This document shows, piece after piece, positions 1,095 to 63,419 of a stretch of DNA of 64,000 bases. Source of the stretch: Mycolicibacterium hassiacum DSM 44199 (GTDB lineage Bacteria > Actinomycetota > Actinomycetes > Mycobacteriales > Mycobacteriaceae); the NCBI RefSeq assembly GCF_900603025.1, contig NZ_LR026975.1, positions 4,278,001 to 4,342,000 of the forward strand, read 5' to 3'. Position numbers and translations under genes: made by a program. The notes under the pieces were generated by a model. The model saw only the letters and a program-made list of their open reading frames with translations, was not told the origin of the DNA and made no database searches. How positions within the stretch are numbered: position 1 is the stretch's first letter; every line of letters starts with the position of its first letter.

Positions 1095-1169
1095 CTTCCT
1101 CCGGCGACAAGACGCGAAAACCCCCAATCCGCCAAGGGATTGGGGGTTTTCGCGTCTGTTCGGCGGGAC
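1095..1169. repeat. 75-bp direct repeat, left copy (island boundary)
   Basis: This segment is identical, base for base, to 63345-63419, an offset of 62,250 bp. Allowing one mismatch (A1094 versus G63344), the match extends to 1091/63341. It starts immediately after the peptidase stop codon, and the partner copy lies immediately beside the transpeptidase stop codon at the other end of the window. The pair looks like a target-site or attachment-site duplication made when the island entered the intergenic terminator. Confidence 0.9.
1111..1156. terminator. Bidirectional intrinsic terminator, left copy
   Basis: A perfect 20-bp inverted repeat (arms 1111-1130 and 1137-1156) encloses the 6-nt loop GCCAAG. 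The arms carry an A-run and a T-run (GCGAAAA and TTTTCGC), so the hairpin has tract features on both strands. It can end the M13 peptidase transcript from the left and the minus-strand catabolic operon from the right. Confidence 0.88.
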
Positions 1170-1177
1170 GTCCGCGG

Positions 1178-1612
1178 TCAGGCGAGTCCGAGCTGCCGGA
1201 CGAAGTCGCCGGCGTCGTAGAACGCGCGCACCCGCACCGCGCGCCCGGAGGCGTCGACGTTCCACACGTCACAGCCGCCGAGCTCGAACCGGTTGCCCGT
1301 CGGTTCGACACCGGGCGGGAACCCGCTGCCGGTGTAGTTGCCGCGCATGACCCACTCGTGGGCCACCCGGCCCAGCCGCTCGTCGACGAGTGGCTGTCCG
1401 ACCGGCTCGAAGACGATGTCGGGGAACGCGGCCCAGGCCGACTCGAAGAACCACTTCGCCCCCGCCCGGTCGGTGAGCGGTTCGGGCAGGCTGGGGTCGA
1501 TCCACTCGATGTCGTCGGCGATCACCGCCAGCGCGACGTCGATATCGCGTTGGTTCCACGCTGCGAAGTACCGGGCCGGATAGTTCGCCAGATGCGCTGT
1601 TGTGCTGGACAA
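1178..1612 (-). CDS. NTF2/SnoaL-like small protein
   Basis: A 144-residue protein of the NTF2-like (SnoaL) alpha+beta-barrel fold. The N-terminal half has the typical helix-rich pattern with YFAAWNQRDIDVALAVIADD, followed by a FFESAWAAFPDIVFEP segment. Members of this fold include isomerases, dehydratases and ring-hydroxylating dioxygenase beta subunits, so the catalytic role cannot be assigned. The only start in this frame is TTG at 1612, preceded by GGAG at good spacing. It is the last gene of the minus-strand meta-cleavage operon, 67 bp downstream of the aldolase gene, and it ends 8 bp from the repeat that marks the island edge. A role in the same aromatic pathway is inferred only from position. 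Confidence 0.75.
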   Translation of the reverse strand: MSSTTAHLANYPARYFAAWNQRDIDVALAVIADDIEWIDPSLPEPLTDRAGAKWFFESAWAAFPDIVFEPVGQPLVDERLGRVAHEWVMRGNYTGSGFPPGVEPTGNRFELGGCDVWNVDASGRAVRVRAFYDAGDFVRQLGLA

Positions 1613-1679
1613 TTCAACTCCAGTTGGGAATGGCGGACAGGATCACTCTGCATTCTGCGGCCGTCCGGGGCTGGCTTCA

Positions 1680-2729
1680 TCAACCGAACGAGGGATTGAG
1701 TTCCCTCTGCGGAGTGGTGCGCTGCCCGGCGAGGAGGTCCAGGGCGACGTCGTCGATCATGTCCTCCTGGCCACCGACCAGCCTGCGGCGCCCCACCTCG
1801 ACGAGGATGTCGCGCACGTCGAGCCCGTAGCGCTCGGCGGCCCACTCGGCGTGGCGCAGGAAGCTCGAGTACACCCCGGCGTAGCCGAGCGTCAGGGTCT
1901 CGCGGTCCACCCGCACCGGCCGATCCTGCAGCGGGCGTACCAGTGTCTCGGCCGCGTCCTGCAGCGCGAACAGGTCGCAGCCGTGCCGCCAGCCGTACAG
2001 CTCGGCGACGGCGACGAACGCCTCGATCGGGCAGTTGCCCGCGCCGGCGCCGTGGCCGCACAGCGAGGCGTCCACCCGGTAGACCCCCTCCTCGACGGCG
2101 ACCACCGAGTTGGCCACCGACAGCGAGAGGTTCTCGTGGGCGTGCACCCCGATCTGGGTCTCCGGCCGCAGCACCTCGCGATAGGCCCGGACCCGGTCGC
2201 GCATGTCCCGCATGGTGAGCCGGCCGCCGGAGTCGGTGACGTACACGCAGTGCGCCCCGGCGTCCTCCATGATCTTCGCCTGCCGGGCGAGCTCGGTGGG
2301 CTCGGCCATGTGCGACATCATCAGGAACCCCGAGACATCCATGCCCAGGTCACGGGCCTTGGCGATGTGCTGGGCGGCGATGTCGGCCTCGGTGGCGTGG
2401 GTGGCCACCCGCACCGAGGTCACGCCGAGGTCGTGTGCGCCCACCAGGTCGTGGACCGTACCGATGCCGGGCAGCAGCAGCGTGGTCAGCCGGGCGTTGG
2501 TGATCACCTCGGCCGCCGCGGCGATCCACACTCCGTCGCTGTGGCTGCCCGCACCGTAGGTCAGGCTCGAGCCGGCCAGCCCGTCGCCGTGGGCCACCTC
2601 GATCGCGGCGACCCCGGCCGCGTCGAGCGCGGCGGCGATGCGGCGCAGCTGGTCGACCGGCAGCCGGTGGCGGATGGCATGCATGCCGTCCCGCAGGGTG
2701 ACGTCCTGGATGTAGAGCTGCACGGTCAT
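1680..2729 (-). CDS. dmpG: 4-hydroxy-2-oxovalerate aldolase
   Basis: A 349-residue class II pyruvate aldolase (DmpG/BphI/HsaF family) that splits 4-hydroxy-2-oxo acids into pyruvate and an aldehyde in the lower meta-cleavage pathway. The N-terminal TLRDGMHA motif (residues 11-18) holds the metal and substrate residues Arg13, Asp14 and His17; the HAH pair at residues 196-198 supplies metal ligands. In this family the aldolase forms a channelling complex with the acylating aldehyde dehydrogenase, which here is encoded just upstream with a 4-bp ATGA overlap (2726-2729). Length matches the family. It belongs to the operon running from about 9981 to 1178. Confidence 0.95.
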
Positions 2730-3667
2730 GCCAACGCCTCCTTCCGGCTGGTCGCGAGCACCTCACCGACCCGCAGCGCAGCCGACGTCATGATGTCGAG
2801 GTTGCCCGCATACGCCGGCAGGTAGTGCGCCGCCCCCTCCACCTCCAGGTACACCGAGACCTGCCAGCACGGCCGCGGGCCGGACGGGTCGACCAGATCG
2901 TGGGCGGCATCCGCGGGTCCGACGGCGCGGAACTGGATGTCCTGTTTGAGCCGGTATCCGGGCACGTAGCCGGCGACGGCGTCGACCATCGCCAGGATGC
3001 GGTCCCGCACCGCGTCGAGGTCGGCATCGCCGATCAGGCAGTGCACGGTGTCGCGCATGATCAGCGGCGGCTCGGCGGGGTTGAGCACGATGATCGCCTT
3101 GGCCCGGTGCGCGTTGCCGACGACTTCCAGTGCACGGGAGGTGGTTTCGGTGAACTCGTCGATGTTGGCCCGGGTGCCGGGGCCGGCCGACTTCGAGGCG
3201 ATCGACGCGACGATCTCGGCGTAGCACACCGGGGTCACCGCGCTCACCGCCGCGACGATCGGGATGGTCGCCTGACCACCGCAGGTGACCATGTTGACGT
3301 TGTCGCGGTGGCGGTGCTCGTCGAGGTTGACCGTCGGCACCACGAACGGCCCCAGCGCGGCCGGGGTGAGGTCGACCAGCACCTTGCCATGCGGTGCTAG
3401 CAAGCCGGCGTTGACCCGGTGTGCGGATGCCGAGGTGGCGTCGAAAACCACGGCGATGTCGTTGAATTCCGGCATGGCGAGCAGGCCCGGCACGCCGTCG
3501 GCGGTGGTTGCCACGCCCAGCCGCCGGGCCCGCTTGAGCCCGTCGGAGTCCGGGTCGATGCCCACCATCGCCCCCATCTCCAGCACCTCGGACAGCCGCA
3601 GCACCTTGATCATCAGATCGGTGCCGATGTTCCCCGATCCCACGATGGCGACCTTCGCCCGGCTCAT
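2726..3667 (-). CDS. Acetaldehyde dehydrogenase (acylating)
   Basis: A 313-residue CoA-acylating aldehyde dehydrogenase (DmpF/HsaG family), partner of the DmpG-type aldolase. It turns the aldehyde released by the aldolase into acyl-CoA using NAD and CoA. The N-terminal Rossmann motif GSGNIG lies at residues 10-15 and the catalytic Cys129 sits in MVTCGGQA. The frame stays open far upstream, but the ATG at 3667 begins the conserved [10 protein letters not shown] and overlaps the stop of the hydratase gene by 4 bp (ATGA), the coupling pattern of this operon. It is short enough to be a stand-alone DmpF-type enzyme and unlike AdhE. Confidence 0.95.
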
Positions 3668-4461
3668 CGCTGCTCCCCTTCGAAACTGACCTGCACCGAA
3701 CCGATCCCGTCGATCTCGGCGAGGTATGTGCTGCCGAACCGGGCCGGGACCATCGGGCCGAGCGCCCCGGACAGCACGATGTGGCCGGCCCGCAGTGGCG
3801 TGCCGTTGGCCTGCGCGGTGCGGGCCAGCCACCACAGCGCGTTGAGCGGGCTGCCCAGGCAGTCCGCGCCGGTCCCGCTCGATACCGCCGCACCGTCCTC
3901 GCTGAGCGTCATCGAGACCGCGGTCAGATCCAGTTGGTCTGCCGCAACCGCGGTCTCGCCGAGCACGAAGCGTGCCGAGGAGCCGTTGTCGGCGATGGTG
4001 TCGACGATGCTGATGGACCAGTCGCGGACCCGGGAATCGACGATCTCCAGTGCCGCGACGGCCTTTCCCGCCGCGGCCCGGATGCGCGCCTCGGAGAGCT
4101 CCCCGTCGAGGTCCTCGGCCAGGATGAAGGCGACCTCGGCCTCGACCTTGGGCTGCAGCAGACCCGCGCGGGTGACCGTGCCCCCGCACGGAATCCGCAT
4201 GTCGGCGAACAGCACCCCGGAGTCGGGCTGATCGACCCCGAGCTGGCGCTGCACGGCCGGCGCGGTGAGGCCGATCTTGTGGCCGACGATGTGTCTGCCC
4301 CGAGCCAGCGCGGCTTCGGTGAGCAGCGCCTGTACCGCATACGCCGCACCGATGTCGCTGTCGCCCAGGATGTCCCGGACCGGTTCGCATTGTCGCGCGG
4401 TGTCGGCGGCGGCCAGCAACCGGTCGGCCGCCTGGCGGAGTTCCGTCGTCGTGACGGTCAT
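3664..4461 (-). CDS. 2-keto-4-pentenoate hydratase (MhpD/HsaE type)
   Basis: A 265-residue hydratase of the fumarylacetoacetase-like superfamily that adds water to 2-hydroxypenta-2,4-dienoate to give 4-hydroxy-2-oxovalerate, the substrate of the following aldolase. The motif GHKIGLT is at residues 60-66, and the metal-binding KVEAEVAF segment (Glu107, Glu109) follows. The start ATG at 4461 is preceded by a strong AGGAGGA ribosome site at about 4475, so the longer open frame upstream is not used. It overlaps the next gene by 4 bp. Hydratase, aldolase and acylating dehydrogenase together form the classic three-gene lower meta pathway. Confidence 0.94.
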
Positions 4462-4492
4462 GATTCGTGCAGTTCCTCCTGTGCTCGGCCGG

Positions 4493-5257
4493 TCAGCCCA
4501 TGCTGGCGGCGCCGTTGACGTAGATCGTCTGCCCGGTGACGAACCGGCTGTCGTCGCCGGCCAGGAACGCGACGGCGGCGGCGACCTCCTCGGGGGTGCC
4601 GGGCCGGCCCATGGGCACGATCTCGGTTGCGCGGGTGACAACCTCGCGCAGCCGCGCCGGGGCCTGCCCGGACTCCAGCAGGGCGGCCAGCTCGGGGGTA
4701 CGGACGTAGCAGGGCGCCACGGTGTTCGCGGTGATGCCGGATCCGGCGTACTCGACCGCCAGGCCGGTGACCATCGCGTGCACACCGCCCTTGGCGGCGT
4801 TGTACATGGCGTGGTCCATCAGGCCGGTCCGCACCGAGTCGGCCCCGATGTTGATGATCCGGCCGTGTCGGCGGCCGATCATGTGCGGCAGGACCGCGCG
4901 CACGCAGTGGATCGTGGTCCACAGGTTGTTGTCGATCGTGGCGCGCAACGTCTCCTCGGTGTGTTCGAGGGTCGGCAGGATCACGCCGCCGCCGGCGTTG
5001 TTGACCAGCACGTCGATATGTCCGAGCACGGCGAGCGCGGCGTCGATCATCTGCTGCGCGGCCGGTGCGTGCTGAAGTTCGCCGACGAATCCCCCCGCGA
5101 CGTCCACCGCGTCACGCACCTTCTGCAGATCCGCTTCCGAGCGGGTCGCCGCGAACACCTGCGCGCCGTCGGCTCGCAGGCGGCGTGCGATGCCCAGCCC
5201 GATCCCGGACGACGCCCCGGTGACGACGGCCGTCCGGCCGGCCAGGGCGGCGCTCAT
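4493..5257 (-). CDS. SDR oxidoreductase, probable cis-dihydrodiol dehydrogenase
   Basis: A 254-residue classical short-chain dehydrogenase. The cofactor motif TGASSGIG is at residues 13-20, NNAG at 86-89, and the catalytic residues are Ser141, Tyr152 and Lys156 (YNAAK). The tail has the usual TGQTIYVNG. It lies between the ring-hydroxylating dioxygenase subunit genes and the lower-pathway genes, with a 4-bp overlap with the beta-subunit gene, so oxidation of a cis-dihydrodiol to a catechol is the natural role. Fold and activity class are clear; the substrate is inferred from position only. Confidence 0.88.
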   Translation of the reverse strand: MSAALAGRTAVVTGASSGIGLGIARRLRADGAQVFAATRSEADLQKVRDAVDVAGGFVGELQHAPAAQQMIDAALAVLGHIDVLVNNAGGGVILPTLEHTEETLRATIDNNLWTTIHCVRAVLPHMIGRRHGRIINIGADSVRTGLMDHAMYNAAKGGVHAMVTGLAVEYAGSGITANTVAPCYVRTPELAALLESGQAPARLREVVTRATEIVPMGRPGTPEEVAAAVAFLAGDDSRFVTGQTIYVNGAASMG

Positions 5258-5766
5258 ATGACGATCGCCACGTCGGAGACGTCGCGCAGGTCGCTCATGT
5301 CGAGCTCGACCCGGCGGAAACAGATCCGCAGACCCGCCTCGGTCCGGCGCAGCCGGTAGCGGTATTTACCGACGTAGCAGTAGCTGCGCCCGCCCCGGAA
5401 CCGCCACACCGTAAAGTGCGCCCGCACCCCGATCTCGCCGTTGTCGTCGGGCCCTTCGACCCGGACGTTGAAGATCTGGTGGTTGGTCCGCGAGTGCGGG
5501 TACTCGCGGTGGGCGCGGCGGCTGTTCAGGCGCACCACCCGGGACCGCAACCGGTTGATGTCGTCGTCGATCAGCAGCAGGTCGGTCGACGGGTCGCCGT
5601 CGAGGGCGTCGTTGCACGGCACCTCGTACTTGGCGTCCTCGGTGAACAGCTGCACCCAGTCGTCGAGTGCCCAGGCATCCAGGAGTTCGGCCTCCCGGTA
5701 GAGGAAGTCCTCGATCTCGGCGCGGGTGGCCTGCTGCCGGCTGTCAACGCGCTCAATGGTGGTCAT
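5254..5766 (-). CDS. Aromatic-ring-hydroxylating dioxygenase, beta subunit
   Basis: A 170-residue small subunit of a Rieske-type ring-hydroxylating dioxygenase, with an NTF2-like fold and structural role. The N-terminal part (EIEDFLYREAELLDAWALDD) and the C-terminal barrel segments (YCYVGKYRYRLRRT, FRRVELD) match the family. The start ATG at 5766 gives MTTIERVD and overlaps the stop of the alpha-subunit gene by 4 bp (ATGA), which argues against the longer frame starting at 5889. Translation coupling would keep alpha and beta stoichiometric. Confidence 0.92.
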   Translation of the reverse strand: MTTIERVDSRQQATRAEIEDFLYREAELLDAWALDDWVQLFTEDAKYEVPCNDALDGDPSTDLLLIDDDINRLRSRVVRLNSRRAHREYPHSRTNHQIFNVRVEGPDDNGEIGVRAHFTVWRFRGGRSYCYVGKYRYRLRRTEAGLRICFRRVELDMSDLRDVSDVAIVI

Positions 5767-7070
5767 CGCACATTCTCCAGGTCCGCTGCGGTTCCCATCT
5801 GTTGCTGCCAGCGCCGCCAGAACTCGCGCATCTGCTCCTCGTCGTTGGCCATCGGTCCGCGGCCCATGCCGCGGGAGATGTCGTTCCACTCCACGCCGCC
5901 ACCGGCGAATCCCTGCTGGCAGGACTCGAGCGCCTCGATGTCGTCCGGCGTGGCGAATCCGCCCGGCCCGAGGAAGGTCAGGAAGCTGTCGGTCCGCCGG
6001 TCGCGCAGGCCGCGCAGTTCGTTGCGCGGTGCGAGCTGCCAGGCCGTGACGTCGACGCGGTCCGGTCCGGCCGGGTAGAGCGTGCGCACGGTGACGGCCA
6101 TGATGTCGTTGACGATCAGGTTCGGGTAGATCAACAGGTTCCGGTTCGTCTCGGCGATCAGCCGCGCCCGTTCGTCGCCGTAGCGGTGCACCAGGTCGGC
6201 CCGGATGCGGGCGATCTCCTCACGGGCGTCCTCGCCGAACAGCGGCTCCCACTTGGCCACCGGCCGCCCCCACGGGGCGGTGTACTGGATGACCGCGTGA
6301 CCGTTGCCGAGGGTGATGGCCCGGCCGTCGACCCCGCCCTGCAGGTCGGTGCCGAGCGAGACGAGGTACTTGAAGTAGGTGTCGTGCGTCGACTGCGCGT
6401 GGTAGCCGTCGACGCTGTTCTCCACGAGCAGTTTCCAGTTGGCGGCGAAGCTGTACTCGTTGGTGCCCCTGGTGATTTCGGCCTCTCCCCCGCAGCCGTC
6501 GATGACCAGGTCGAGGTAGTCCTTGGCGCCGGCCAGGTAGGTCGGCAGGTCGACGATGTCGGGATCGAAGCTGGCGAAGACGAAACCGCGGTAGGACTCG
6601 ACACGGGGCACCTTGGCCAGGCCGAGCTCGTCGAAGTTCAGCCCGCTGGCGTAGGCCTCGCGGTCCGGCACGCCGCGCAACCGGCCATCGGTGTCGAACG
6701 ACCAGGCGTGGTAGAAGCAGGAAAACACCTTGGCGTTGCCGGAGTCCTGGCGGCACACCAGGGCACCGCGGTGCGTGCACGAGTTGTGGAAGACGTTGAT
6801 CTGCCCGGTCGTGACGCTACGCACCATGAAGACCGGCCGCCCGGCCAACGGACGCCGCACGAAGTCCCCCGGGTTGGGGATCTCGGATTCGTGCCCGAGA
6901 TACAGCCACGAGCGGCCGAACACCCGCTCGATCTCGGCGCGGTAGACCGCCTCGGAGGTCATGGCGGCACGGTGCACCCGGAAGGTGTGGTTGGCGCGGT
7001 CCTCGACCACCATCGGCGAGGTCGCGACGCCGGCCCGGGCGGTCGTCGGGTTAGTCACATCGATGGTCAT
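5763..7070 (-). CDS. Aromatic-ring-hydroxylating dioxygenase, Rieske alpha subunit
   Basis: A 435-residue catalytic large subunit. The Rieske [2Fe-2S] ligands are Cys98, His100, Cys118 and His121 (SCTHRG and CFYHAW). The mononuclear iron site is complete, with Asp221, His224 and His229 in NSVDGYHAQSTH. The enzyme adds both atoms of O2 to an aromatic ring. Two-component alpha/beta oxygenases of this type need a ferredoxin and a reductase; no separate ferredoxin is encoded in this operon, so electrons must come from a distant gene, possibly the FNR-type reductase at 56247. The substrate is not evident; benzoate-, cumate- or biphenyl-type dioxygenases share this layout. Confidence 0.94.
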   Translation of the reverse strand: MTIDVTNPTTARAGVATSPMVVEDRANHTFRVHRAAMTSEAVYRAEIERVFGRSWLYLGHESEIPNPGDFVRRPLAGRPVFMVRSVTTGQINVFHNSCTHRGALVCRQDSGNAKVFSCFYHAWSFDTDGRLRGVPDREAYASGLNFDELGLAKVPRVESYRGFVFASFDPDIVDLPTYLAGAKDYLDLVIDGCGGEAEITRGTNEYSFAANWKLLVENSVDGYHAQSTHDTYFKYLVSLGTDLQGGVDGRAITLGNGHAVIQYTAPWGRPVAKWEPLFGEDAREEIARIRADLVHRYGDERARLIAETNRNLLIYPNLIVNDIMAVTVRTLYPAGPDRVDVTAWQLAPRNELRGLRDRRTDSFLTFLGPGGFATPDDIEALESCQQGFAGGGVEWNDISRGMGRGPMANDEEQMREFWRRWQQQMGTAADLENVR

Positions 7071-7086
7071 GGGTCACCACTTTCGG

Positions 7087-7926
7087 TCAGTTCCCGGAAA
7101 GGAAATCCGACACCAGCGCCGAGAACTCCGCGCCGCGTTCGATCTGGGTCCAGTGCCCGCACCGACTGAACACGTGCAGGTCGGCGTTGGGCAGCAGGTC
7201 CAGCATGGTGATCGACACGCTCAGCGGCACCACCTTGTCCTCGCGGCCGTGCACCAGCAGGGTCGGTGTCGCGATGGCGCGCACCTCGTCCTCGGTGATG
7301 CCCAGTTGCGACCCGGCGTGTTTGGGGTCGAAGAACATCGCCCGGTAGGTCTCGTGGGCCCCGTCGGCGATGCTCGCGGCATACCGGGTCTCCACCAGTT
7401 CGTCGGTGATCAGCTCGGGGTCCACCGCGAAGTAGTTGCGCAGCAGATCCCGCATCGCCTCCCGCGAGGGCTGGTAGGCGCGCAGCGCCTTGAGCCCGTC
7501 GGTCGGCACCATGCCCACCCCCGGGGCACCCATCAGCACCATTCGCGAGATGCGGTCCGGATGATCGGTGGCCATCTGCAGGGCGATCCGACCGCCCAGC
7601 GAGTTGCCCACCACCGCAACCCGATCGATTTCGTGGGCGTCCAGGAAGGCCCACACGTGGTCGGTCCAGGTGCGCAGCGAGTAGATGATGTCGGCGGGCC
7701 GCTCGGTGGCGCCGAACCCGACGATGTCCGGTGCCAGGACGCGGAACCGCTGCGCCAGCGTGGGAATGTTGTTCTGCCAGTTGGCCAGTGCGGACACCCC
7801 GGGCCCCGATCCGTGCAGCATCAGCACCGGCGCACCGGTGCCGGCCTCCAGATAGGCGGTGGCGATGCCACCGGCCGTGATGGTTCTTCTCGCCGGACTC
7901 TGGGCCGGCGCGGTCTGGGTCGTCAT
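7087..7926 (-). CDS. Alpha/beta hydrolase, meta-cleavage product (C-C bond) hydrolase
   Basis: A 279-residue alpha/beta hydrolase resembling BphD/HsaD/CmtE. The oxyanion-hole motif HGSGPG is at residues 38-43, the nucleophile elbow GNSLGG carries Ser109, the acid is in HGREDKVVP, and the catalytic His is in RCGHWTQIE. HGSGPG and GNSLGG are characteristic of hydrolases that split the vinylogous diketone left after extradiol ring cleavage, giving a short acid and 2-hydroxypentadienoate. The start ATG at 7926 overlaps the extradiol dioxygenase stop by 4 bp. The gene sits directly downstream of the ring-cleavage gene, as expected. Confidence 0.93.
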   Translation of the reverse strand: MTTQTAPAQSPARRTITAGGIATAYLEAGTGAPVLMLHGSGPGVSALANWQNNIPTLAQRFRVLAPDIVGFGATERPADIIYSLRTWTDHVWAFLDAHEIDRVAVVGNSLGGRIALQMATDHPDRISRMVLMGAPGVGMVPTDGLKALRAYQPSREAMRDLLRNYFAVDPELITDELVETRYAASIADGAHETYRAMFFDPKHAGSQLGITEDEVRAIATPTLLVHGREDKVVPLSVSITMLDLLPNADLHVFSRCGHWTQIERGAEFSALVSDFLSGN

Positions 7927-8999
7927 TGCGGGATTTCCTCCTTGAACACGGCAAAGCACTTGTTGGAGTTGAAAACATCGGTGAGGATCAGGTCCGACCA
8001 CTCCAGCCGAAGGCCGGCTTCGGCGACCGCCCCGGTCAGGCAGAACCAGTTGAGCATCTCGTGCTGGCCGGAATCGACGATGTCGGCGGTGGTCGTCTGG
8101 TTCCAGCGCTCCCAGTCACCGGCCTTGAACAGCTCGTACAGGCGCAGGTCGGCCTCGGTGTCCGGGACGATGTGCCAGGTCTTGTCGGTCAGGAAGGCAT
8201 GCGACCAGCTCGACGAGGCGATCAGCGCGACACGCAGATCGGTATCCGAGAAGGCCTGTGCCACCGCCTTTCCGAGTTCGAAGCAGCGCTTCGGCGACGG
8301 TCCCACCGGGTCCGGCTGCTCCTGGGCGATCTCGGCGAACCGGGCCAGCCCGCCGCGGCGGGCGATCGCGTGCTGGCCGTAGCAGTTCACCGTGATCGGG
8401 ATCAGCGGGTACGGGAAGTTCCGGCCCGCATGCGGATAGTCCAGAAACAGCTGGGTGTTGGTGATCGCGTGCGGGAACGGCGCATTCAACCGGTGCTGGT
8501 AGGAGTAGGCGATGTCGAAGCCGAGGTCGATCAGCCGGTCGGCAAGTCGGCGGGCCTGCTCGGGGACGCCGTGCAGGGTGATCCTGGTGTCGTCGGCCAG
8601 GCCCCAGGCGTTGGGGCTGCCCCGGTCGCGCATCACCTCGAAGGGGTCGACCTCGACGTCGCCGTAGGCCAGCACGCAGAACGGCGGGATGACCTCCTCG
8701 CGGAAGTTCTCGTACTGATCGTCACCCCAGACCACCACCACGTCCGGCCCGAATTCGTCCAGCGCCTCCCGGCACCGGGCGAGGGCTTCCACCAACTGCT
8801 TTCGGTGATGTGCCGCGGCTGCGACCCCGGCGTCGTCACCCCATTCCGCGCGCATGGACTCCGGCCAGTTGGCCGGGTCCTTGGCCGCGGCCGGGATGTC
8901 GGGATCCTGCAGTGTCCACCGCAGCAGGCTGGCCATGTGCTCGTCAGTGCCGGCGAGCAAGGGGTAGTGCGTGATGCCCAGCCCCAGGAAGTGTGCCAT
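7923..8999 (-). CDS. Class III (LigB-like) extradiol ring-cleavage dioxygenase
   Basis: A 358-residue protein of the LigB/DODA-type extradiol dioxygenase superfamily, which opens catechols next to the hydroxyl pair using non-haem Fe(II). His11 in GITHYPLL fits the first iron ligand, and the catalytic His lies in SSSWSHAFL. Where LigB and MhpB have Asp-His (second iron ligand), this protein has Asp93-Asp94 in WGDDQYENF, so it belongs to a divergent subgroup or uses a different ligand. The start ATG at 8999 gives MAHFLGLG and overlaps the end of the amidohydrolase gene by 56 bp. Its position between amidohydrolase and C-C hydrolase supports a ring-opening role. Confidence 0.85.
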   Translation of the reverse strand: MAHFLGLGITHYPLLAGTDEHMASLLRWTLQDPDIPAAAKDPANWPESMRAEWGDDAGVAAAAHHRKQLVEALARCREALDEFGPDVVVVWGDDQYENFREEVIPPFCVLAYGDVEVDPFEVMRDRGSPNAWGLADDTRITLHGVPEQARRLADRLIDLGFDIAYSYQHRLNAPFPHAITNTQLFLDYPHAGRNFPYPLIPITVNCYGQHAIARRGGLARFAEIAQEQPDPVGPSPKRCFELGKAVAQAFSDTDLRVALIASSSWSHAFLTDKTWHIVPDTEADLRLYELFKAGDWERWNQTTTADIVDSGQHEMLNWFCLTGAVAEAGLRLEWSDLILTDVFNSNKCFAVFKEEIPQ

Positions 9000-9981: not shown

Positions 9982-10036
9982 GGATTTCGTCGATCTCCCC
10001 GGATGTGCGGGACAGGTGCCGATGACGATAGCCGAT

Positions 10037-11829: not shown

Positions 11830-11838
11830 CCGCACCGC

Positions 11839-12769: not shown

Positions 12770-12782
12770 CAAAGGAGTGCTC

Positions 12783-56250: not shown

Positions 56251-57236
56251 AGGTCCAGCACCAGCCGTTCGCCGCGGGAACCCGAGACACAGACCATCAT
56301 CACCGATCCGCTGTCGCGCTCGGCGTCGTTGAGCACCGAGTCACGATGCAGCGGCGACCCCTCCAGCACCCGGGCCTCACAGGTTCCGCAGATCCCTTCG
56401 TAGCAGCTCCCTGTGATCGGCACCCCCGCAGCCTCGAGCCGCTCGAGGATCGACTCGTGCGCCGCCACCTCGATGGTCACCCCGGACCGGCGGCATACGA
56501 CCTCGAACCGGTCCAATGCGGCGGAGTCGTCGACGGTGATCTGCTTGGCGGCGAACCGCTCGACGTGCAACACACCCGCAGGCCAGTGCGCGCAATGTTG
56601 CTCCACCGCGGTCAACAGCCCCTCCGGCCCGCAGCAGTACACCAGCGTGTCGTCGGCCGGGTCCTTCAGCGCCGTCTCCAGGTCGAGCAGCCCCCGCTCG
56701 TCCTGCGGCCAGATGGTCACGCGGCCCGGGAATCTCGTCGCCAGCTCGTCGGCGAAGGCCATCGACGCCCGAGTCCTGCCACCGTAGAGCAGGGTCCAGT
56801 CCTGGCCAGTCCGGTGCACCTGTTCGACCATCGCCAGGATCGGTGTGATGCCGATGCCGCCGGCGATGAATCGGTAACGGGGCGCCTCGACGAGCTGGAA
56901 GTGATTGCGCGGTCCCCGTACCCGTACCCGGCATCCTTCCCGGAGTTGTTCATGCACGAACTTGGAACCACCCCGGCTGTTCGGATCGAGCAGGACCCCG
57001 ATGCGCCAGATGCTGTGGTCGTCGAAGTCGCCGCACAGCGAATACTGGCGTGTCAGGCCGTTTTCCAGACACAAGTCGATATGGGCCCCGGGCTCCCATC
57101 GCGGCAGCGCAGCTCCGGACGGGTCGGCAAGGTCGAGCAGGACCACGCCGTCGGCGACACTGGTACGGCTCCGCACCACCAGTTCGGCGGTGAACTCACG
57201 GACCTGTGCGGTGGGGGTCGAGATGGGGGCAGACAT
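56247..57236 (-). CDS. Oxygenase reductase: FNR-type flavin domain with C-terminal 2Fe-2S ferredoxin (VanB type)
   Basis: A 329-residue phthalate-dioxygenase-reductase-like protein: an FMN-binding domain (TRQYSLCGD, the RFIAGGIGITPILAM nucleotide-binding segment), an NAD domain (VYCCGPEGLLTAVE), and a plant-type [2Fe-2S] cluster with CYEGICGTC and a later Cys in MMVCVSGSRG. It passes electrons from NAD(P)H to the Rieske oxygenase gene product that follows. ATG at 57236 is chosen; GTG at 57251 or TTG at 57260 are possible. It may also supply the two-subunit dioxygenase at 5.2-7.1 kb, which lacks its own electron carriers. Confidence 0.92.
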   Translation of the reverse strand: MSAPISTPTAQVREFTAELVVRSRTSVADGVVLLDLADPSGAALPRWEPGAHIDLCLENGLTRQYSLCGDFDDHSIWRIGVLLDPNSRGGSKFVHEQLREGCRVRVRGPRNHFQLVEAPRYRFIAGGIGITPILAMVEQVHRTGQDWTLLYGGRTRASMAFADELATRFPGRVTIWPQDERGLLDLETALKDPADDTLVYCCGPEGLLTAVEQHCAHWPAGVLHVERFAAKQITVDDSAALDRFEVVCRRSGVTIEVAAHESILERLEAAGVPITGSCYEGICGTCEARVLEGSPLHRDSVLNDAERDSGSVMMVCVSGSRGERLVLDL

Positions 57237-57331
57237 CGATGACACGCTCACAATCGGCAACTCAACGGGCTATCTCCGGAACACAGTGGTGGCTGGGCAC
57301 CGCGCGCCCAGCCACCGACCTCAACAGCGAC

Positions 57332-58783
57332 TCACTTCGCCTCGCCCGGTGGGAGATACACGGTCTTGTGCACCTGGAACCCGGCAAGGCCCTCCGGACC
57401 GAGTTCACGTCCCCAACCACTCTTCTTGATGCCACCGAACGGGGCGACCGGGTCGTTGGTGTAGTGGTTCACCCCGACGGTGCCGGAGTGGACTCGGCGG
57501 GCGACCGCGATGGCCCGGTCCGGATCCGCCGACCACACGCTGCCGCCCAGCCCGTAGTCGCTGTCGTTGGCGATCGCGATGGCCTCCTCGTCGCTGCCGT
57601 ACGGGATCAGCGACAGCACCGGCCCGAAGATCTCCTCGCGCGAGATCGTCGCCTGGTTGTCCACGTCGGCGAAGATGGTCGGCTCGATGAAGAAGCCGCG
57701 GTCGAACGGCCGCCGGCCACCGGTGGTCATGCGGCCCTCGGCCTTGCCCTTCTCGATGTAGCCCTCGACGCGTTCCTGCTGCCGCCGCGAAACCAGCGGA
57801 CCGATCTTGGTTTCCGGGTCCAGCGGGTCGCCGACCTTCAGCGCCTTGGCCAGATCGGTGATCGCGTCGACGATCTCCTGGTACCGGTTGCGCGGGACCA
57901 GGACCCGGGTACCCAGCCAGCAGATCTGCCCGTTGTTCAACAACGTGCAGGCGAACAGGTTCTCCAGCGAGGCCGACAGGTCCACATCGTCGAGCAGGAT
58001 GGCCGCGGACTTGCCGCCGAGTTCCAGGGTCACCGGGCGCAGCAGCTCGCCGCAGGTCCGGGCGATGGCCCGGCCGGCCGCCGTGGAACCGGTGAAGGAC
58101 ACCTTGTCGACCCCGGGGTGTGCGACCAGATAGGCCCCCAGCTCGCGCCCGCCCGGCACCACGTTGAGTACCCCGGGCGGCAGCCCGGCTGCGACCGCGG
58201 CCTCCGCCATCAGGAACGCGTCGAGCACCGTCTCCTCGGCCGGCTTCAGCACGACGGTGCACCCGGCGGCCAAGGCCGGTGCGATCTTGAGGAACGAGAT
58301 CGCCTGCGGGACGTTCCAGGGCACGATCGCCGCAACCACGCCGATCGGCTCCTTGGAAACCAGGCACGAACCGCCGAGCATGCCGGGCCGTACCTCCTCG
58401 GCCGGCGCCCCGGTCATCAGCCCGCTGTAGTAGCGCAGCAGCAGGGCGGGGAATCCGGCCTCGAAGTTGTTGGCGAGCCAGATCGGCATGCCGTTCTGCA
58501 TCGACACCCGCCGGGCCGTCTCCGCCGCGCGGGCCTCGAGTTCCCTGGCGAACCGCTCGAGCACCTCGGCGCGGTCCTTGGCTTCCCAGCTCGCCCAGCC
58601 GTCCGGGGCGTCGAAGGCCGCCCGGGCCGCCGCGACGGCGGCGTCGACGTCGGCCTCACCGCCCCGCGGCACACTACCGATCCGTTCCTCGGTGGCCGGC
58701 GAGTGGACCTCGATCGTGCCGGTTCCGGCCGGCACGATCCAGGTGCCCCCGATGTAGAGCTGGTTGTATTCGATCGTCGTCAT
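57332..58783 (-). CDS. Aldehyde dehydrogenase
   Basis: A 483-residue NAD-dependent aldehyde dehydrogenase with Asn157 (PWNVPQ), the FTGSTAAG cofactor loop, Glu254 in LELGGKSA, and the catalytic Cys288 in NNGQICWLG, all required residues present. ATG at 58783 gives MTTIEYNQLY; the frame upstream is the P450 gene in another phase. Together with the P450 and alcohol dehydrogenase encoded next to it, it completes methyl-to-carboxylate oxidation, the arrangement known from terpineol degradation. Confidence 0.94.
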   Translation of the reverse strand: MTTIEYNQLYIGGTWIVPAGTGTIEVHSPATEERIGSVPRGGEADVDAAVAAARAAFDAPDGWASWEAKDRAEVLERFARELEARAAETARRVSMQNGMPIWLANNFEAGFPALLLRYYSGLMTGAPAEEVRPGMLGGSCLVSKEPIGVVAAIVPWNVPQAISFLKIAPALAAGCTVVLKPAEETVLDAFLMAEAAVAAGLPPGVLNVVPGGRELGAYLVAHPGVDKVSFTGSTAAGRAIARTCGELLRPVTLELGGKSAAILLDDVDLSASLENLFACTLLNNGQICWLGTRVLVPRNRYQEIVDAITDLAKALKVGDPLDPETKIGPLVSRRQQERVEGYIEKGKAEGRMTTGGRRPFDRGFFIEPTIFADVDNQATISREEIFGPVLSLIPYGSDEEAIAIANDSDYGLGGSVWSADPDRAIAVARRVHSGTVGVNHYTNDPVAPFGGIKKSGWGRELGPEGLAGFQVHKTVYLPPGEAK

Positions 58784-58797
58784 GGTGTCCCGTTCCG

Positions 58798-60126
58798 TCA
58801 GGAGATCTTCACCCGGGCCGGCAGATGCTTGAGGCCACCGACGAAGTTCGTCGGGGTCAGGCTGCCCGGCCCGGTGATCTCGATGGACTCGAGACGCGGG
58901 AGCAGCTCCTCGAACATGATCCGCAGCTCGAGCTTGGCCAGGTGCTGGCCGACACAGGTGTGCGGGCCGAACCCGAAGCCCAGGTGCGAGTTGTTCTCCC
59001 GATCCAGGCTGAACACGTCCGGGTTTTCGAAGAGATCCTCGTCCCGGCAACCGGACTGGAACAGCGGCATGACACGTTCGCCGGCCTTGATGGTCTGGCC
59101 GCCGAGTGTGGTGTCGGTCAGCGCGATCCGCATGAAGTGCTTGACCGGCGCGACGTAGCGGACCGCCTCGACCACCATCTTCGGCACCAGCGACAGATCG
59201 GCCTTCACCCGCGCCAGCACATCGGGATGCTCGGCCAGCGCCTTGAGCGTGCCGGCCAGCGTCGACGAGGTGGTGTCGTGACCGGCGGTGCACACCTGCA
59301 TGAACCAGCCGTAGGCGAACGAGGCCGGCCAGTACTCGCCGTCCGCCCGCCGGGCCTGCGCGATAATGGTGGCCAGATCGTCGCGCGGATTGGCGCGCCG
59401 GTCCTGCAGCAGGTTCTCGAAGTAGCCGCAGAACTCCTGGAAACTCGCCACGAACTGCTGGGCCATCGCCTCAGGCGTCATCGCCTCGATGTCGTCGCGC
59501 TGGTATTCGGGGTCGGCGGTGCCGAAGAACTCCTGGGTAAGCTTCATCATGAGCGGCTCGTCCTCCGGCGGCACCCCGAACAGGCTCATGATCACGTGCA
59601 GCGGGAAGCCGAGCGCCCAGTCGGTTACCAGATCGATCTCGCCCTGTTCGGAGACCTTTTTGAGCTTGTCGATCGACGCCCGGGCCAACTGCCGGATCTG
59701 ATCCTCGAGCTTGGCCACCCGGCTGGGCTTGAAGTAGTCGAAGGCGATCGCCTTCATCGCGGAGTGTTCGGCACCGTCCATGTACGGCAGGGCGTCCATG
59801 ATGCGCACGGTCCCAACGGTGTTCTTCATGAACTGGTCGCCGGCCTGGTTCTGCAGGATCGGGTTGTGGCTCCCCGGGTGGTCGGGGCCGCCACCGGCGG
59901 CGAACACCTCCGGCATCCCCTCGACCTGGAGGATGTCGGCGTGCTTGGCGACGAGCCAGAGCTCGTCAAAGCCGTCGACAACGGCTTTGCCTACCGGCAT
60001 GTTCTGGCGCATCCAGCGGTAGGCCGCGTGCAGCGAGTCCAGGTCCGCGTGGCCCTCCGGAAGCACGATCTTCCGGGCGATCTCATCGGGCAGAATCGCT
60101 TGTGCCACAGGTTGAGTGGTGGTCAT
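58798..60126 (-). CDS. Cytochrome P450, CYP108 (P450terp)-like
   Basis: A 442-residue bacterial P450. The I-helix AGHDTTS is at residues 281-287, the ExxR pair is Glu320/Arg323, and the haem Cys391 lies in FGFGPHTCVGQHLA. The regions YVAPVKHFMR, FEELLPRLESIEITGP and NFVGGLKHLP resemble CYP108A1 (P450terp), which hydroxylates the allylic methyl of alpha-terpineol. ATG at 60126 gives MTTTQPVAQA after AGAGGA; the earlier ATG at 60183 is less likely. No ferredoxin gene is adjacent, so electron supply is open. Neighbouring aldehyde and alcohol dehydrogenase genes support stepwise methyl oxidation. Confidence 0.92.
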   Translation of the reverse strand: MTTTQPVAQAILPDEIARKIVLPEGHADLDSLHAAYRWMRQNMPVGKAVVDGFDELWLVAKHADILQVEGMPEVFAAGGGPDHPGSHNPILQNQAGDQFMKNTVGTVRIMDALPYMDGAEHSAMKAIAFDYFKPSRVAKLEDQIRQLARASIDKLKKVSEQGEIDLVTDWALGFPLHVIMSLFGVPPEDEPLMMKLTQEFFGTADPEYQRDDIEAMTPEAMAQQFVASFQEFCGYFENLLQDRRANPRDDLATIIAQARRADGEYWPASFAYGWFMQVCTAGHDTTSSTLAGTLKALAEHPDVLARVKADLSLVPKMVVEAVRYVAPVKHFMRIALTDTTLGGQTIKAGERVMPLFQSGCRDEDLFENPDVFSLDRENNSHLGFGFGPHTCVGQHLAKLELRIMFEELLPRLESIEITGPGSLTPTNFVGGLKHLPARVKIS

Positions 60127-60288
60127 TTCTGAATCCTCTCTCGAATCGTCTCCGGCGGTTCGGCTGCACTGGGGGTGATTCAAGTCTCATGACGGGCCGG
60201 CGTTCGCGCGTCACCACGTCGAGGGGTCCGCGGTCTTACATTGGGGGGATCGGCGCGGTGTGCGACCCGAAGGAATCACCCCCCGCGG

Positions 60289-60612
60289 TCACGGGCAGCC
60301 GTCGTCGATCCACTGCTCGATCAACCGGATTTCGTCCTCCGACAACGGATCGAGGTATGCCGGCATCCGGGGCAGCAGCGCTCCGGCTGGCGGCTCGTCG
60401 AGATCGGAGCCGAACGGCGGCTGGCCCCGCAGCGACAGCACGAGATTCGAGTTCGCGCCGTCGCCCGGCGTCACCAGCTTGCGGCCGCCCACTTTCATCT
60501 CCAGGAAGCGTTCGCGCGTCACCCCGCGCCAGAACGCACCGTGGGACCCGACATAGGCGTCGGCACCGCCGACCGAGCGGTCCAGCAGGTCGATGACATC
60601 GTCGAACTTCAT
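60289..60612 (-). CDS. Small protein with cytochrome-c-like C-terminal motif but no haem site
   Basis: A 107-residue protein with no signal peptide and no CxxCH. Its C-terminal half, PRMPAYLDPLSEDEIRLIEQ followed by WIDDGCP, is the ending seen in small c-type-cytochrome or planctomycete cytochrome-like domains. The rest (FWRGVTRERFLEMKVGGRKL) is unrecognised. It lies between the P450 and alcohol dehydrogenase genes in the same direction. A structural or metal-binding role in the oxygenase system is possible; no function is assigned. Confidence 0.65.
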   Translation of the reverse strand: MKFDDVIDLLDRSVGGADAYVGSHGAFWRGVTRERFLEMKVGGRKLVTPGDGANSNLVLSLRGQPPFGSDLDEPPAGALLPRMPAYLDPLSEDEIRLIEQWIDDGCP

Positions 60613-60660
60613 TGATAAGCCCCTTCTTTGCAGATGTTTTCGCGTTATCAGCAGCCCGAG

Positions 60661-61761
60661 CTACGGGGTCAGAACGACCTTCAACGCGTCACCGCGGTGC
60701 TGCGCCTCGACCGCCTCGTTGATCTGATCGAACGGGTACTTGGTGATCAGCTTGTCGAACGGGAACCTGCCCTGGCGGTGCAGATCCAGCAGGTACGGAA
60801 TGAAGGTCTTGGGATCGGCGTCACCCTCGACGATTCCGCGGATGGTCATCCCGACCAGCTGAGGTTGCAGCAGGCCGACGGTGAACACCGCCTGCGGGTC
60901 GGCGGGCACGCCGATGAGGCCCACCTTGCCCCGCATCGCCACCGCGGCGAGTAGTTGCTCAACCACAGGGCCGACTGCCGTGGTGTCGATGGCGTAGTCC
61001 ACGCCGGCGGGAACGATCGCGCGGATCTGTTCGGCGAGCTCACCGGCGGTGGGATCGATGGCGTGGGTGGCGCCTAGCTCGAGAGCCAGCTTGCGCCGCC
61101 CCTCCTGCAGATCGACCGCGATGATGTGCGAGGCGTCCCGGACCACCGCCGCGAGCACCGCCGAGAGCCCGACCGCCCCCGCACCGGTGACCACCACCGA
61201 CGATCCGGGCTGCACGTCCAGCGAGTTCATCACCGCTCCGGCACCGGTCTGAATGCCGCAACCGAGCGGTCCGGCGATGTCGACCGGCACCCCCGCCGGC
61301 AGCTTGACCACATTGCGTTCGTGGGCGAGGGCATGGGTGGCCAGCGACGACTGCCCGAAGAAGTTCCCTCCGAGCTCGGTACCGCCGGCCGACAGCCCCG
61401 AGCTGCCATCCGGGCGCACCCCGCCGAAGTTGTACTCCAGGAAGTTGTGGCAGTAGGCTGGCTCGCCGACGGCACAACGGGGGCAGTTGCTGCAGCTGTT
61501 GAAGCTGATTGCGACCTGGTCGCCGACGGCGACCTCGGTCACGGCCGTACCCGCCGCGACCACGGTCCCGGCCCCCTCGTGGCCGAGCACACCCGGCAGC
61601 GGGAACGGCAGATGCCCCTCCTTGACGGCCAGATCGGTGTGGCAGACGCCGACACCGGCGATCTTCACCAGCACCTCGTCGGGCCCTGGTTCGCCGAGCT
61701 CGACATCGGTCAGGGTGAACGGAGCGCCAACCTCTTGCACCACCGCGGCTTTGATTTGCAT
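60661..61761 (-). CDS. Zinc-dependent alcohol dehydrogenase (aryl/allyl alcohol type)
   Basis: A 366-residue zinc alcohol dehydrogenase. Catalytic zinc ligands Cys40 and His61 lie in GVCHTDLA and LGHEGAG, the structural zinc cysteines are 90, 93, 96 and 104 (CSNCPRCAVGEPAYC), and the NAD motif is GAGAVGLSAV. The pattern fits benzyl/geraniol-type dehydrogenases (XylB, GeoA) acting on bulky primary alcohols. ATG at 61761 gives MQIKAAVVQE. It would oxidise the alcohol made by the P450 before the aldehyde dehydrogenase acts. Confidence 0.94.
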   Translation of the reverse strand: MQIKAAVVQEVGAPFTLTDVELGEPGPDEVLVKIAGVGVCHTDLAVKEGHLPFPLPGVLGHEGAGTVVAAGTAVTEVAVGDQVAISFNSCSNCPRCAVGEPAYCHNFLEYNFGGVRPDGSSGLSAGGTELGGNFFGQSSLATHALAHERNVVKLPAGVPVDIAGPLGCGIQTGAGAVMNSLDVQPGSSVVVTGAGAVGLSAVLAAVVRDASHIIAVDLQEGRRKLALELGATHAIDPTAGELAEQIRAIVPAGVDYAIDTTAVGPVVEQLLAAVAMRGKVGLIGVPADPQAVFTVGLLQPQLVGMTIRGIVEGDADPKTFIPYLLDLHRQGRFPFDKLITKYPFDQINEAVEAQHRGDALKVVLTP

Positions 61762-61914
61762 TCTGTGCCCCTTGCTTCTCATCCGGTCATCTCCGACCCC
61801 CGGTCGGCAACGACCGCGGGCCGACAGATCCTGCACCGGAGTCTGTCCAAGACGGCGCGGTCGCCGCGTCACCACATCGGGCGGTTCTCGATCCCGCAGC
61901 GGGGGTAGCCCGCC

Positions 61915-62808
61915 TCACCCCACCACGCCGGCGCTGCACGCCATCGCCAGCACCCGCTCGGCCTGGCGCAGATGCGGCGCGTCGAGCATCTTGCCGTCCA
62001 GCGCAACGGTCCCCACACCGTCGGCGAACGCGGCGATCACCCTTTGTGCGTAGTCGATCTCGGCTTGCGACGGGGTGAATGCCGCGTTGATGGTCTCGAC
62101 CTGCGCCGGGTGGATGGCGATCCTTCCGGTGAACCCCTCGCTGCGGGCCCGCCGCGACGAGACGGCCAGCCCCTCGAGGTCACGGATGTCGGCATAGAGC
62201 GTCTCGACCGGTTCGACATCGGCTGCCCGGGCGGCCAGCAGGGCCAGCGAACGCACCGTCTGGTAGGTGACCGCCCATTCCCCCGTCGGCCCCAGGTTGG
62301 TCGACGCACCCAGCGCGGCGCTGAGATCCTCGGCACCCCAGGTCAATCCGTACAATCGATCGATGCCTGCAGCCGCGAATTCACCGAGCGAGAACGGCGC
62401 GCGCGCCGTCTCGGTCGCCACCGGCAGGATCCGGGTACTACCCGGCGGGATGCCGTGGACCGCCTCCAGCGCGTCCAGGTAGTGACCGACGCGCAGCACG
62501 TCGGCGGGACCGTCGATCTTCGGCAGCACGATCCCCGCCGGCGCACCCGCCATCACCGCGGTCAGATCCGGCAGGGCGTGATCGGTTCCGAGGGGGTTGA
62601 TCCGGACCCACAACTGGGTCCGGTTCCGGCCTCGCCGGTCCTGCAGGTACTGCGAAACCAACTCTCGTGCAACGGCCTTTCGCGGCTCGGCGACGGCGTC
62701 CTCGAGATCGAGGATCAACGCATCGGCCGGCGAGTCGGCCACCTTGGCGAGCTTCTTGTCGCTGTCGCCCGGCACGAACAGGAACGACCGGATCAGCCGC
62801 CGGGTCAT
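61915..62808 (-). CDS. HpcH/HpaI/CitE-like aldolase or thioester lyase
   Basis: A 297-residue TIM-barrel lyase of the CitE-like group, with RSFLFVPGDSDKKLAK, the metal-site segment ALILDLEDAVAEPRK, WVRINPLGT, and YGLTWGAEDLSAALG, where Glu and Asp bind Mg. Relatives split or form malyl-, citramalyl- or beta-methylmalyl-CoA. The gene overlaps the MaoC hydratase gene by 4 bp, and such CitE/MaoC pairs often hydrate and then cleave a branched or dicarboxylic CoA intermediate. The specific substrate is unknown. Confidence 0.88.
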   Translation of the reverse strand: MTRRLIRSFLFVPGDSDKKLAKVADSPADALILDLEDAVAEPRKAVARELVSQYLQDRRGRNRTQLWVRINPLGTDHALPDLTAVMAGAPAGIVLPKIDGPADVLRVGHYLDALEAVHGIPPGSTRILPVATETARAPFSLGEFAAAGIDRLYGLTWGAEDLSAALGASTNLGPTGEWAVTYQTVRSLALLAARAADVEPVETLYADIRDLEGLAVSSRRARSEGFTGRIAIHPAQVETINAAFTPSQAEIDYAQRVIAAFADGVGTVALDGKMLDAPHLRQAERVLAMACSAGVVG

Positions 62809-63263
62809 CGCGGCCTCTTACGCTGCAGACCCGAGCGCTTGCAGGACGCCACCAGCTCGTCGTGCTGGTTGTAGGCCTGGTGCAGGAAGACCACGATGCC
62901 CTGGTCCGGGCGGGATCTCGACTCCCGCAACTCCAGCACCTCGGTCACCACCCGGATGGTGTCGCCGTGGAACACCGGCTTGGGGAAGCGGACCTCGTCC
63001 CAGCCCAGGTTGGCCACCGCGGTTCCAAGCGTGGTGTCGCCCACCGAGATGCCGACCATCAACCCGAGCGTGAACGCGCTGTTGACGACGCGCCGACCGA
63101 ATTCGGTGCCCTTCATGTACTCCTCGTCGAGGTGGAGCAGGGCGGGGTTGTGGGTCAGCGCGGTGAACAGGATGTTGTCGGTCTCGGTGATCGTTCGGCG
63201 GATGGGGTGTTCGAATCGCTGTCCCACCGACAGCTCGTCGAACCAGACACCGGCCATGGGCAC
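62805..63263 (-). CDS. MaoC-like hydratase (mesaconyl-CoA hydratase-like)
   Basis: A 152-residue hot-dog hydratase with TRRT-like lead FEHPIRRTITETDNILFTA, the active-site segment THNPALLHLDEEYMKGTEFG, and VNSAFTLGLMVGISVGDTTLG. It resembles mesaconyl-CoA hydratase and other MaoC acyl-CoA hydratases that pair with CitE-type lyases, as here. First gene of the right-hand minus operon, its ATG at 63263 is preceded by AAAGGGGG. A FadR-like operator lies 42 bp upstream, and the island boundary repeat begins 82 bp upstream. Confidence 0.9.
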   Translation of the reverse strand: MPMAGVWFDELSVGQRFEHPIRRTITETDNILFTALTHNPALLHLDEEYMKGTEFGRRVVNSAFTLGLMVGISVGDTTLGTAVANLGWDEVRFPKPVFHGDTIRVVTEVLELRESRSRPDQGIVVFLHQAYNQHDELVASCKRSGLQRKRPR

Positions 63264-63304
63264 CCCCTTTCTTACGGCTCGCTCTCCATACGCAGTGGAT
63301 CGAA

Positions 63305-63315
63305 TGGTATGACCG
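63305..63315. promoter_or_regulatory. FadR-like operator TGGTATGACCG
   Basis: Matches the set (T/A)GGT(C/A)NGACC and lies 42 bp before the MaoC gene, beside the AT-rich TTTATATAG stretch, which on the minus strand may form the -10 or -35 region. Nearly the same sequence, AGGTATGACCA, precedes the GntR gene. Confidence 0.55.
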
Positions 63316-63344
63316 TTTATATAGTCAGGTCAAGGACGCGCTGG

Positions 63345-63419
63345 CTTCCTCCGGCGACAAGACGCGAAAACCCCCAATCCGCCAAGGGATTGGGGGTTTT
63401 CGCGTCTGTTCGGCGGGAC
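63345..63419. repeat. 75-bp direct repeat, right copy (island boundary, includes terminator)
   Basis: Identical to 1095-1169. It contains the same perfect 20-bp-stem hairpin (arms 63361-63380 and 63387-63406, loop GCCAAG), which here can end the transpeptidase transcript coming from the right. It abuts the transpeptidase stop codon at 63421-63423 with one base between. Confidence 0.9.

What the first reader, a model, noticed from the sequence alone, without database searches (positions are those of the whole stretch)
1095..63419. A 62-kb catabolic island bounded by a perfect 75-bp direct repeat that is a bidirectional terminator
The sequence 1095-1169 recurs exactly at 63345-63419. The left copy begins right after the stop of an M13 peptidase gene; the right copy sits right beside the stop of an L,D-transpeptidase gene, and the two genes point at each other. 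Deleting 62,250 bp leaves one terminator between two convergent housekeeping genes, the layout expected of the empty site. The island may therefore have used a terminator as its integration or recombination site, and recombination between the copies would release a circle. No integrase or resolvase gene is visible inside the window.
Basis: partly seen in the sequence, partly recalled or inferred. Interest (0 to 1): 0.9.

Follow-up and report, generated by a model that had tools for sequence, protein, structure and literature searches.

The report
Catabolic island flanked by duplicated hairpin
A heat-loving mycobacterium carries a 62-kb block of genes that look made for breaking down aromatic and fatty compounds, inserted between two ordinary genes, and the short hairpin that separates those genes in relatives is here present, letter for letter, at both ends of the block.

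Summary
Confirmed: 1095-1169 and 63345-63419 are identical over 75 bp. The genome is Mycolicibacterium hassiacum DSM 44199. The predicted empty site exists: with the block and one copy removed, the flanks align through the junction in 6 of 7 chosen relatives, and 18 of the 29 nearest sampled relatives have the two genes at most 98 bp apart. The block was not seen as a unit in 15 of the 16 nearest; its aromatic cluster and a Mce operon also sit together on an M. paragordonae plasmid. So this is an acquired island, and the repeat is a derived duplication. The hairpin differs between species, yet the two copies are identical and cover 75 of the 76 bp between the stop codons. I therefore favour duplication of the resident spacer within this lineage over a classical att site brought by a foreign element. 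No site-specific recombinase was found in the island; its two ISs are later insertions. Termination is untested, and the hairpin lacks a T-run. The mechanism stays open.

The parts
1..1094 (+). M13 peptidase gene, 3' part; left conserved flank
   Evidence: Pfam Peptidase_M13, 5.3e-80; 393 of 396 genus genomes searched, own included, have a match
1095..1169 (.). left copy of the 75-bp direct repeat (hairpin stem 1111-1130/1137-1156, loop 1131-1136)
1170..63344 (.). inserted block of 62,175 bp between the two copies (62,250 bp with one copy)
   Evidence: not seen as a unit in 15 of the 16 nearest relatives
1178..9981 (-). aromatic meta-cleavage cluster: SnoaL, DmpG-like aldolase, acylating acetaldehyde dehydrogenase, FAA-hydrolase-type hydratase, SDR, ring-hydroxylating dioxygenase beta and alpha, alpha/beta hydrolase, LigB extradiol dioxygenase, amidohydrolase
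   Evidence: Pfam; collinear matches in other mycobacteria and on a plasmid
10147..16750 (.). acyl-CoA ligase, GntR/FCD regulator, acyl-CoA dehydrogenase, SDRs, enoyl-CoA hydratase
17053..20033 (+). IS256-family element interrupted by an IS110 (transposase 17929-19158, minus); 9-bp target duplication CAGGTGGAT; a later insertion
20919..40471 (.). phosphotransferase, enoyl-CoA hydratases, GntR/FCD regulator, SDRs, CoA-transferase, thiolase, acyl-CoA dehydrogenases, CoA ligases, MaoC pair, alcohol dehydrogenase
40560..49747 (-). Mce operon (two MlaE-type permeases, six MlaD/Mce proteins)
50069..52272 (-). two GAF/LuxR-type regulators
52695..55110 (-). IS21-family element (Mu-type transposase, IstB); 4-bp target duplication CGGG; a later insertion
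55156..63257 (-). Rieske oxygenase, reductase, aldehyde dehydrogenase, P450, alcohol dehydrogenase, HpcH aldolase, MaoC
63345..63419 (.). right copy of the 75-bp direct repeat
63421..64000 (-). L,D-transpeptidase (YkuD) gene, 3' part; right conserved flank
   Evidence: Pfam YkuD; 148 of 148 genus genomes searched, own included, have a match, paralogues included

Best explanation
The block is a horizontally acquired catabolic island that entered the M. hassiacum lineage at the spacer between two convergent genes. Before that the spacer held one hairpin. Shown: the repeat, the empty site in relatives, the lack of the block as a unit in the nearest relatives searched, and later IS insertions inside it. 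Inferred: the two copies descend from the single resident spacer and were duplicated within this lineage, at or near the time of insertion. Mechanism I commit to (inferred): the strong palindrome was broken in a staggered way, with nicks near both ends of the spacer; foreign DNA was joined to the ends, and filling in the single strands copied the spacer onto both sides, as a very long target duplication. Mycobacterial Ku/LigD end joining (recalled, not tested here) could do this without any recombinase. My split: lineage-internal duplication with insertion of foreign DNA, about 0.9; capture at a staggered break as its cause, about 0.4.
For: Empty site: joined flanks plus one copy align through the junction in 6 of 7 chosen relatives; 18 of the 29 nearest sampled relatives have the genes at most 98 bp apart. 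The spacer differs between species: 60 of 85 aligned columns identical to G216, 57 of 82 to G068, 54 of 84 to G081, 49 of 76 to G039, yet 75 of 75 between the two copies. No trace of a longer duplication beside either copy. The repeat covers 75 of the 76 bp between the stop codons and is centred within 1.5 bp of the hairpin axis (coordinates). No exact twin among the 75 hairpins of the family that were listed for five relatives, of 155 counted in eight. No recombinase in the called island genes. The ISs lie inside the block with their own short target duplications, so they did not make the ends.
Against: A 75-bp target duplication is far longer than any I know of. The agreement of the repeat's ends with the gene ends, and its symmetry about the hairpin, may be one coincidence, because the hairpin sits in the middle of the spacer. 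A lost integrase, or a circle from another strain of the species, would also give two identical copies. Over the best local stretch the spacer is 78-83% identical to four relatives, so it is not free of constraint. No intermediate or second strain was seen.
Confidence: 0.4

Rival explanations
1. Classical genomic island: a circular element integrated by a tyrosine or serine recombinase whose attachment site is the hairpin; the repeats are attL and attR, and the integrase gene has been lost or lies elsewhere.
For: Direct repeats exactly at the ends, a clean empty site, and catabolic cargo related to a plasmid cluster. Loss of the integrase is common in old islands (recalled). Seven tyrosine recombinase matches lie elsewhere in the genome.
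Against: No integrase in the called island genes, and no tblastn match in the window to the longest frame of the seven tyrosine recombinase loci (in 4 of 7 that frame has the recombinase's length). Nearest PF00589 match about 1.59 Mb away. A foreign element's att would be expected to differ from the host spacer, and attL and attR would then differ from each other; they are identical. No tRNA gene in the window. The hairpin gave no match in the phage and plasmid collections, and its 20-base core none in viral contigs.
Confidence: 0.27
2. A circle that had formed in the same species by recombination between the two copies re-entered by a single RecA-type crossover in the 75 bp; the island moves between strains of the species this way.
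For: Explains the identity of the copies. Another M. hassiacum isolate has a chromosome about 273 kb shorter by the two stated lengths (the paper says about 200 kb) at 99.73% average identity (PMC11435378, passages), so large blocks differ between strains; which blocks is not known to me.
Against: Does not explain how the first pair of copies arose; 75 bp is short for efficient homologous recombination (recalled).
Confidence: 0.18
3. Old insertion with one hairpin left, the second copy arising later, or both kept identical by gene conversion or by selection for a terminator on each side.
For: Inserts between the same two genes in G029, G064 and G120 have a same-family but non-identical hairpin at each end (read by eye), so a hairpin on each side of such inserts is not unusual.
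Against: Selection for a hairpin would not keep loop and outer bases identical; the copies match over the whole spacer.
Confidence: 0.1
4. Assembly artefact.
For: None found.
Against: PacBio assembly with reads of 17,024 bp on average at 223-fold coverage (PMC6346194, whole text) easily spans 75 bp; the two junctions have different unique flanks.
Confidence: 0.02

Closest known systems
Integrase-borne genomic islands and ICEs (att-flanked)
   Same: foreign cargo, exact direct repeats at both ends, clean empty site in relatives
   Different: no integrase found in the block, no tRNA, no conjugation gene among the called genes; the repeat is a whole spacer hairpin that differs between species, not a conserved att core
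Plasmid-borne aromatic catabolic cluster with Mce operon (M. paragordonae 305-kb plasmid NZ_CP025547)
   Same: same gene order from DmpG to the amidohydrolase, followed by the FCD regulator and a Mce operon
   Different: on a plasmid; 66-89% protein identity in that cluster and 62-81% in the Mce operon; the island has a CoA ligase between amidohydrolase and regulator, and its Mce operon lies about 28 kb from the regulator; no IS is annotated in the 26-kb stretch viewed
Insertions at palindromic repeats (REP-targeting IS elements; PMC1525189, search listing with start of abstract only)
   Same: a palindromic intergenic sequence is the place of insertion
   Different: those are IS elements; here 62 kb of cargo and a 75-bp duplication

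Membership tests
Integrase-mediated genomic island / ICE | direct repeats at both ends | tested here: met
   75/75 identical
Integrase-mediated genomic island / ICE | precise empty site in relatives | tested here: met
   6 of 7 chosen relatives align through the junction; the seventh has a 751-bp insert
Integrase-mediated genomic island / ICE | site-specific recombinase gene in the element | tested here: not met
   Pfam scans of the called genes show none; nearest PF00589 match about 1.59 Mb away; serine recombinases not searched genome-wide
Integrase-mediated genomic island / ICE | conserved att site such as a tRNA gene | tested here: not met
   no tRNA in the window; the spacer differs between species
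Integrase-mediated genomic island / ICE | excised circle | not testable with these tools
   needs reads or PCR
Composite transposon | IS copies at both ends | tested here: not met
   ISs only inside, at 17053-20033 and 52695-55110, each with its own target duplication
DDE transposon | terminal inverted repeats of the block and a short target duplication | tested here: not met
   block ends match at 4 of the first 20 positions, and the local score of the terminal 40 bases is reached by 77 of 500 shuffles; none of the inverted repeats of 30 nt or more is terminal except those of the hairpins themselves; the repeat is 75 bp
Intrinsic terminator | GC-rich hairpin followed by a T-run | tested here: not met
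   hairpin strong but no T-run match; mycobacterial hairpins without a T-run may still terminate (recalled)

The most novel reading that the evidence does not exclude
Long palindromic spacer hairpins between convergent mycobacterial genes act as recombinase-free landing pads: breakage at the hairpin captures large foreign DNA, and fill-in duplicates the whole hairpin, so that the island arrives already insulated by a hairpin on each side.
Probability: 0.2. Interest if true: 0.7.

Novelty: new variant of a known kind. Interest (0 to 1): 0.42.

Why it matters
Islands without a recombinase gene are common (recalled) and their entry is usually unexplained. Here the empty site, the exact duplicated unit and its species-specific sequence are all known, so the mode of entry can be tested with a few strains. 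If spacer hairpins do work as landing pads, the hairpins of this family in mycobacteria (27, 38 and 66 strict matches in three of eight genomes searched, 4-7 in the other five) would mark places where foreign DNA can enter without harming genes.

Tried and rejected
Chance repeat: rejected. Two unrelated members of a dispersed family: the family exists, but other members in this genome are at most 85% identical apart from one 24-base partial match, and under the strict pattern share at most 38 of 46 positions. Composite transposon by the two ISs: rejected. Block as a transposon with short terminal inverted repeats: none seen. Larger, decayed duplication of the gene ends: inner flanks against the opposite outer flanks score no better than shuffles (53 and 49 of 200 shuffles reach the score). 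Stepwise growth at an old insert: in 21 fetched loci with other inserts between the same genes, island proteins match only through SDR paralogues at 28-30% identity in one locus. Identical repeats round other M13-LDT inserts: within up to 600 bases of each end of 22 gaps, the longest exact direct repeat was 22 bp, a shared hairpin arm. Circular permutation of the island relative to clusters elsewhere: right-end genes lie near left-end genes in Protofrankia, Frankia and Mycobacterium sp. AT1, but in other orders or orientations, so no conclusion (18 of 79 loci shown). Viral, phage or plasmid origin of the hairpin: no match. Literature on terminators as integration sites: the listings show no paper that describes this; they cover open-licence PMC only.

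Limits. Genus searches are a sample of a larger group (148 genomes; 396). The 15 genomes are the 16 nearest without G138, which I left out by oversight; those searches covered 1170-17100, 20800-40500 and 43400-63344, and their listings were cut. The seven relatives were chosen; six of them were already known to have adjacent genes. In one search, gaps run between BLAST match ends, so they can include bases of the stop codons, and ten of 29 relatives had no LDT within the fetched 1.5 kb (larger inserts or contig ends). Of 155 strict hairpins counted in eight relatives, 75 were listed and compared; G039, G216 and G064 had none listed. Pfam was run on called genes, not on all 249 ORFs. The names of the G handles are not known from any call.
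Full report
Observation. The two 75-bp copies at 1095-1169 and 63345-63419 are identical and do not extend. They occupy the whole spacer from the M13 stop codon to 1 bp before the L,D-transpeptidase stop. The hairpin has 20-bp stem arms (1111-1130 and 1137-1156) inside a longer palindrome with 30-nt arms that are 90% complementary. The canonical terminator scan around the left copy did not report it, since no T-run follows the stem, so termination is inferred from position and shape only.

Identity of the genome. The window is positions 4,278,001-4,342,000 of a single 5,269,097-bp contig. That is the length of the M. hassiacum DSM 44199 chromosome (PMC6346194, whole text). IS positions in Table 1 of PMC10832570 (section 15 read) fall on the window's IS110, IS256 and IS21-family genes. 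A search of that paper's main text for 'island' gave 0.

Copies elsewhere. The chromosome has two exact copies and nine other places with looser relatives, best 85% apart from one 24-base partial match at 96%. With a strict arm pattern there are five hairpins, two of them our copies. Of 148 genus genomes searched, own included, 48 have a match at E 0.001 or better; no listed row outside this genome is above 86% (listing cut). Strict matches number 4-7 in five of eight chosen relatives and 27, 38 and 66 in the other three. No two of the 75 listed ones are identical within a genome; the closest pairs share 44 of 46 positions. The exact pair here is therefore unusual for the family, as far as listed.

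Empty site. M13 matches were found in 393 of 396 genus genomes. Of the 29 nearest by M13 sequence, 18 have LDT 12-98 bp downstream, 1 has it at 751 bp, and 10 have no LDT within the fetched flank. The three nearest (G133, G068, G216) have gaps of 98, 78 and 79 bp. G068, G216, G081 and G039 hold a hairpin of the same family there; G133 holds an unrelated one. The joined flanks with one copy align through the junction in 6 of 7 chosen relatives; the seventh, G191, carries a 751-bp insert. In other genomes the same gap holds inserts of up to 9.8 kb: among 21 fetched loci, 13 are related to each other, 5 to each other and 3 stand alone, and none holds the island. It is a tolerant place.

The block. 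Pfam scans give an aromatic dioxygenase and meta-cleavage cluster, beta-oxidation-type genes, a Mce operon, two regulators, and a Rieske/P450/aldehyde dehydrogenase cluster. In 15 of the 16 nearest relatives the listed matches are single genes or operons at scattered places; apart from IS sequence the long ones are 64-81% identical, such as a Mce operon in G191 at 77% (listings cut). The left cluster occurs in many actinobacteria in variable company. On an M. paragordonae plasmid it sits beside a Mce operon. G+C is 68.2% against 70.2% in 80 kb of flanks.

Mobile genes. An IS256 interrupted by an IS110 (17053-20033) and an IS21 (52695-55110) have their own 9-bp and 4-bp target duplications. They are 99.4% and 99.96% identical to copies in G191, so they came later and moved recently between species. 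They do not touch the block's ends. No tyrosine or serine recombinase was seen among the called genes of the block. Seven tyrosine recombinase matches lie elsewhere in the genome, the nearest about 1.59 Mb away; the longest frames of those loci give no tblastn match in the window (the frame being certainly the recombinase in 4 of 7). Serine recombinases were not searched genome-wide.

Mechanism. In an att integration by a foreign element the two att copies mix host and element halves, so any difference between host and element spacer appears as a difference between the copies. Against the four relatives with the same hairpin family the spacer differs in 29-36% of aligned columns, or 17-22% over the best local stretch, yet the copies differ at 0 of 75 sites. 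By the rule of three this bounds their divergence at about 4%. So the second copy most likely came from this lineage: either the spacer was duplicated at insertion, or the element had already been resident in the species. I prefer duplication at insertion, by capture of foreign DNA at a staggered break of the hairpin. I hold the integrase reading as the main rival, and re-entry of a circle within the species as the next. None is proven. The closed chromosome of another isolate is about 273 kb shorter by the stated lengths (the paper says about 200 kb) at 99.73% identity (PMC11435378, passages). Whether it lacks the block is the decisive check, which I could not run.

Novelty. An island with direct repeats is a known kind. 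Without a recombinase found in it, and with a whole spacer hairpin as the duplicated unit, it is a variant that I did not find described in the searches (listings only).

Noticed in passing
genus-wide; e.g. L254, L255, L257: A family of palindromic spacer hairpins with conserved outer arms (GAGCAGACGCRAAA...) and variable, mostly self-complementary inner arms is scattered in mycobacteria: 4-7 strict copies in five of eight relatives searched and 27-66 in the other three. A paper search for the 10-base arm motif gave 54 papers; none of the 10 listed is about mycobacteria by its title.
   Followed up: partly
window 17053-20033 and 52695-55110; L236: The IS256::IS110 nest and the IS21 are 99.4% and 99.96% identical to copies lying about 1.1 kb apart in another mycobacterium (G191), which suggests recent exchange between the two lineages.
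   Followed up: partly
window 16789-17058 and 19962-20342: The IS256 may split a metal-dependent hydrolase gene: a PF10118 fragment lies at its right side; the small ORF at its left side has no Pfam match.
   Followed up: no
window 17078-17150, minus: Rfam match to Ms_AS-8 (RF02466, 91 bits) inside the left end of the IS256, so this described small RNA may be an IS-end sequence.
   Followed up: no
L237 (G191), M13-LDT gap: A 751-bp unexplained insert between the same two genes, and two unrelated families of larger inserts in other genomes.
   Followed up: partly
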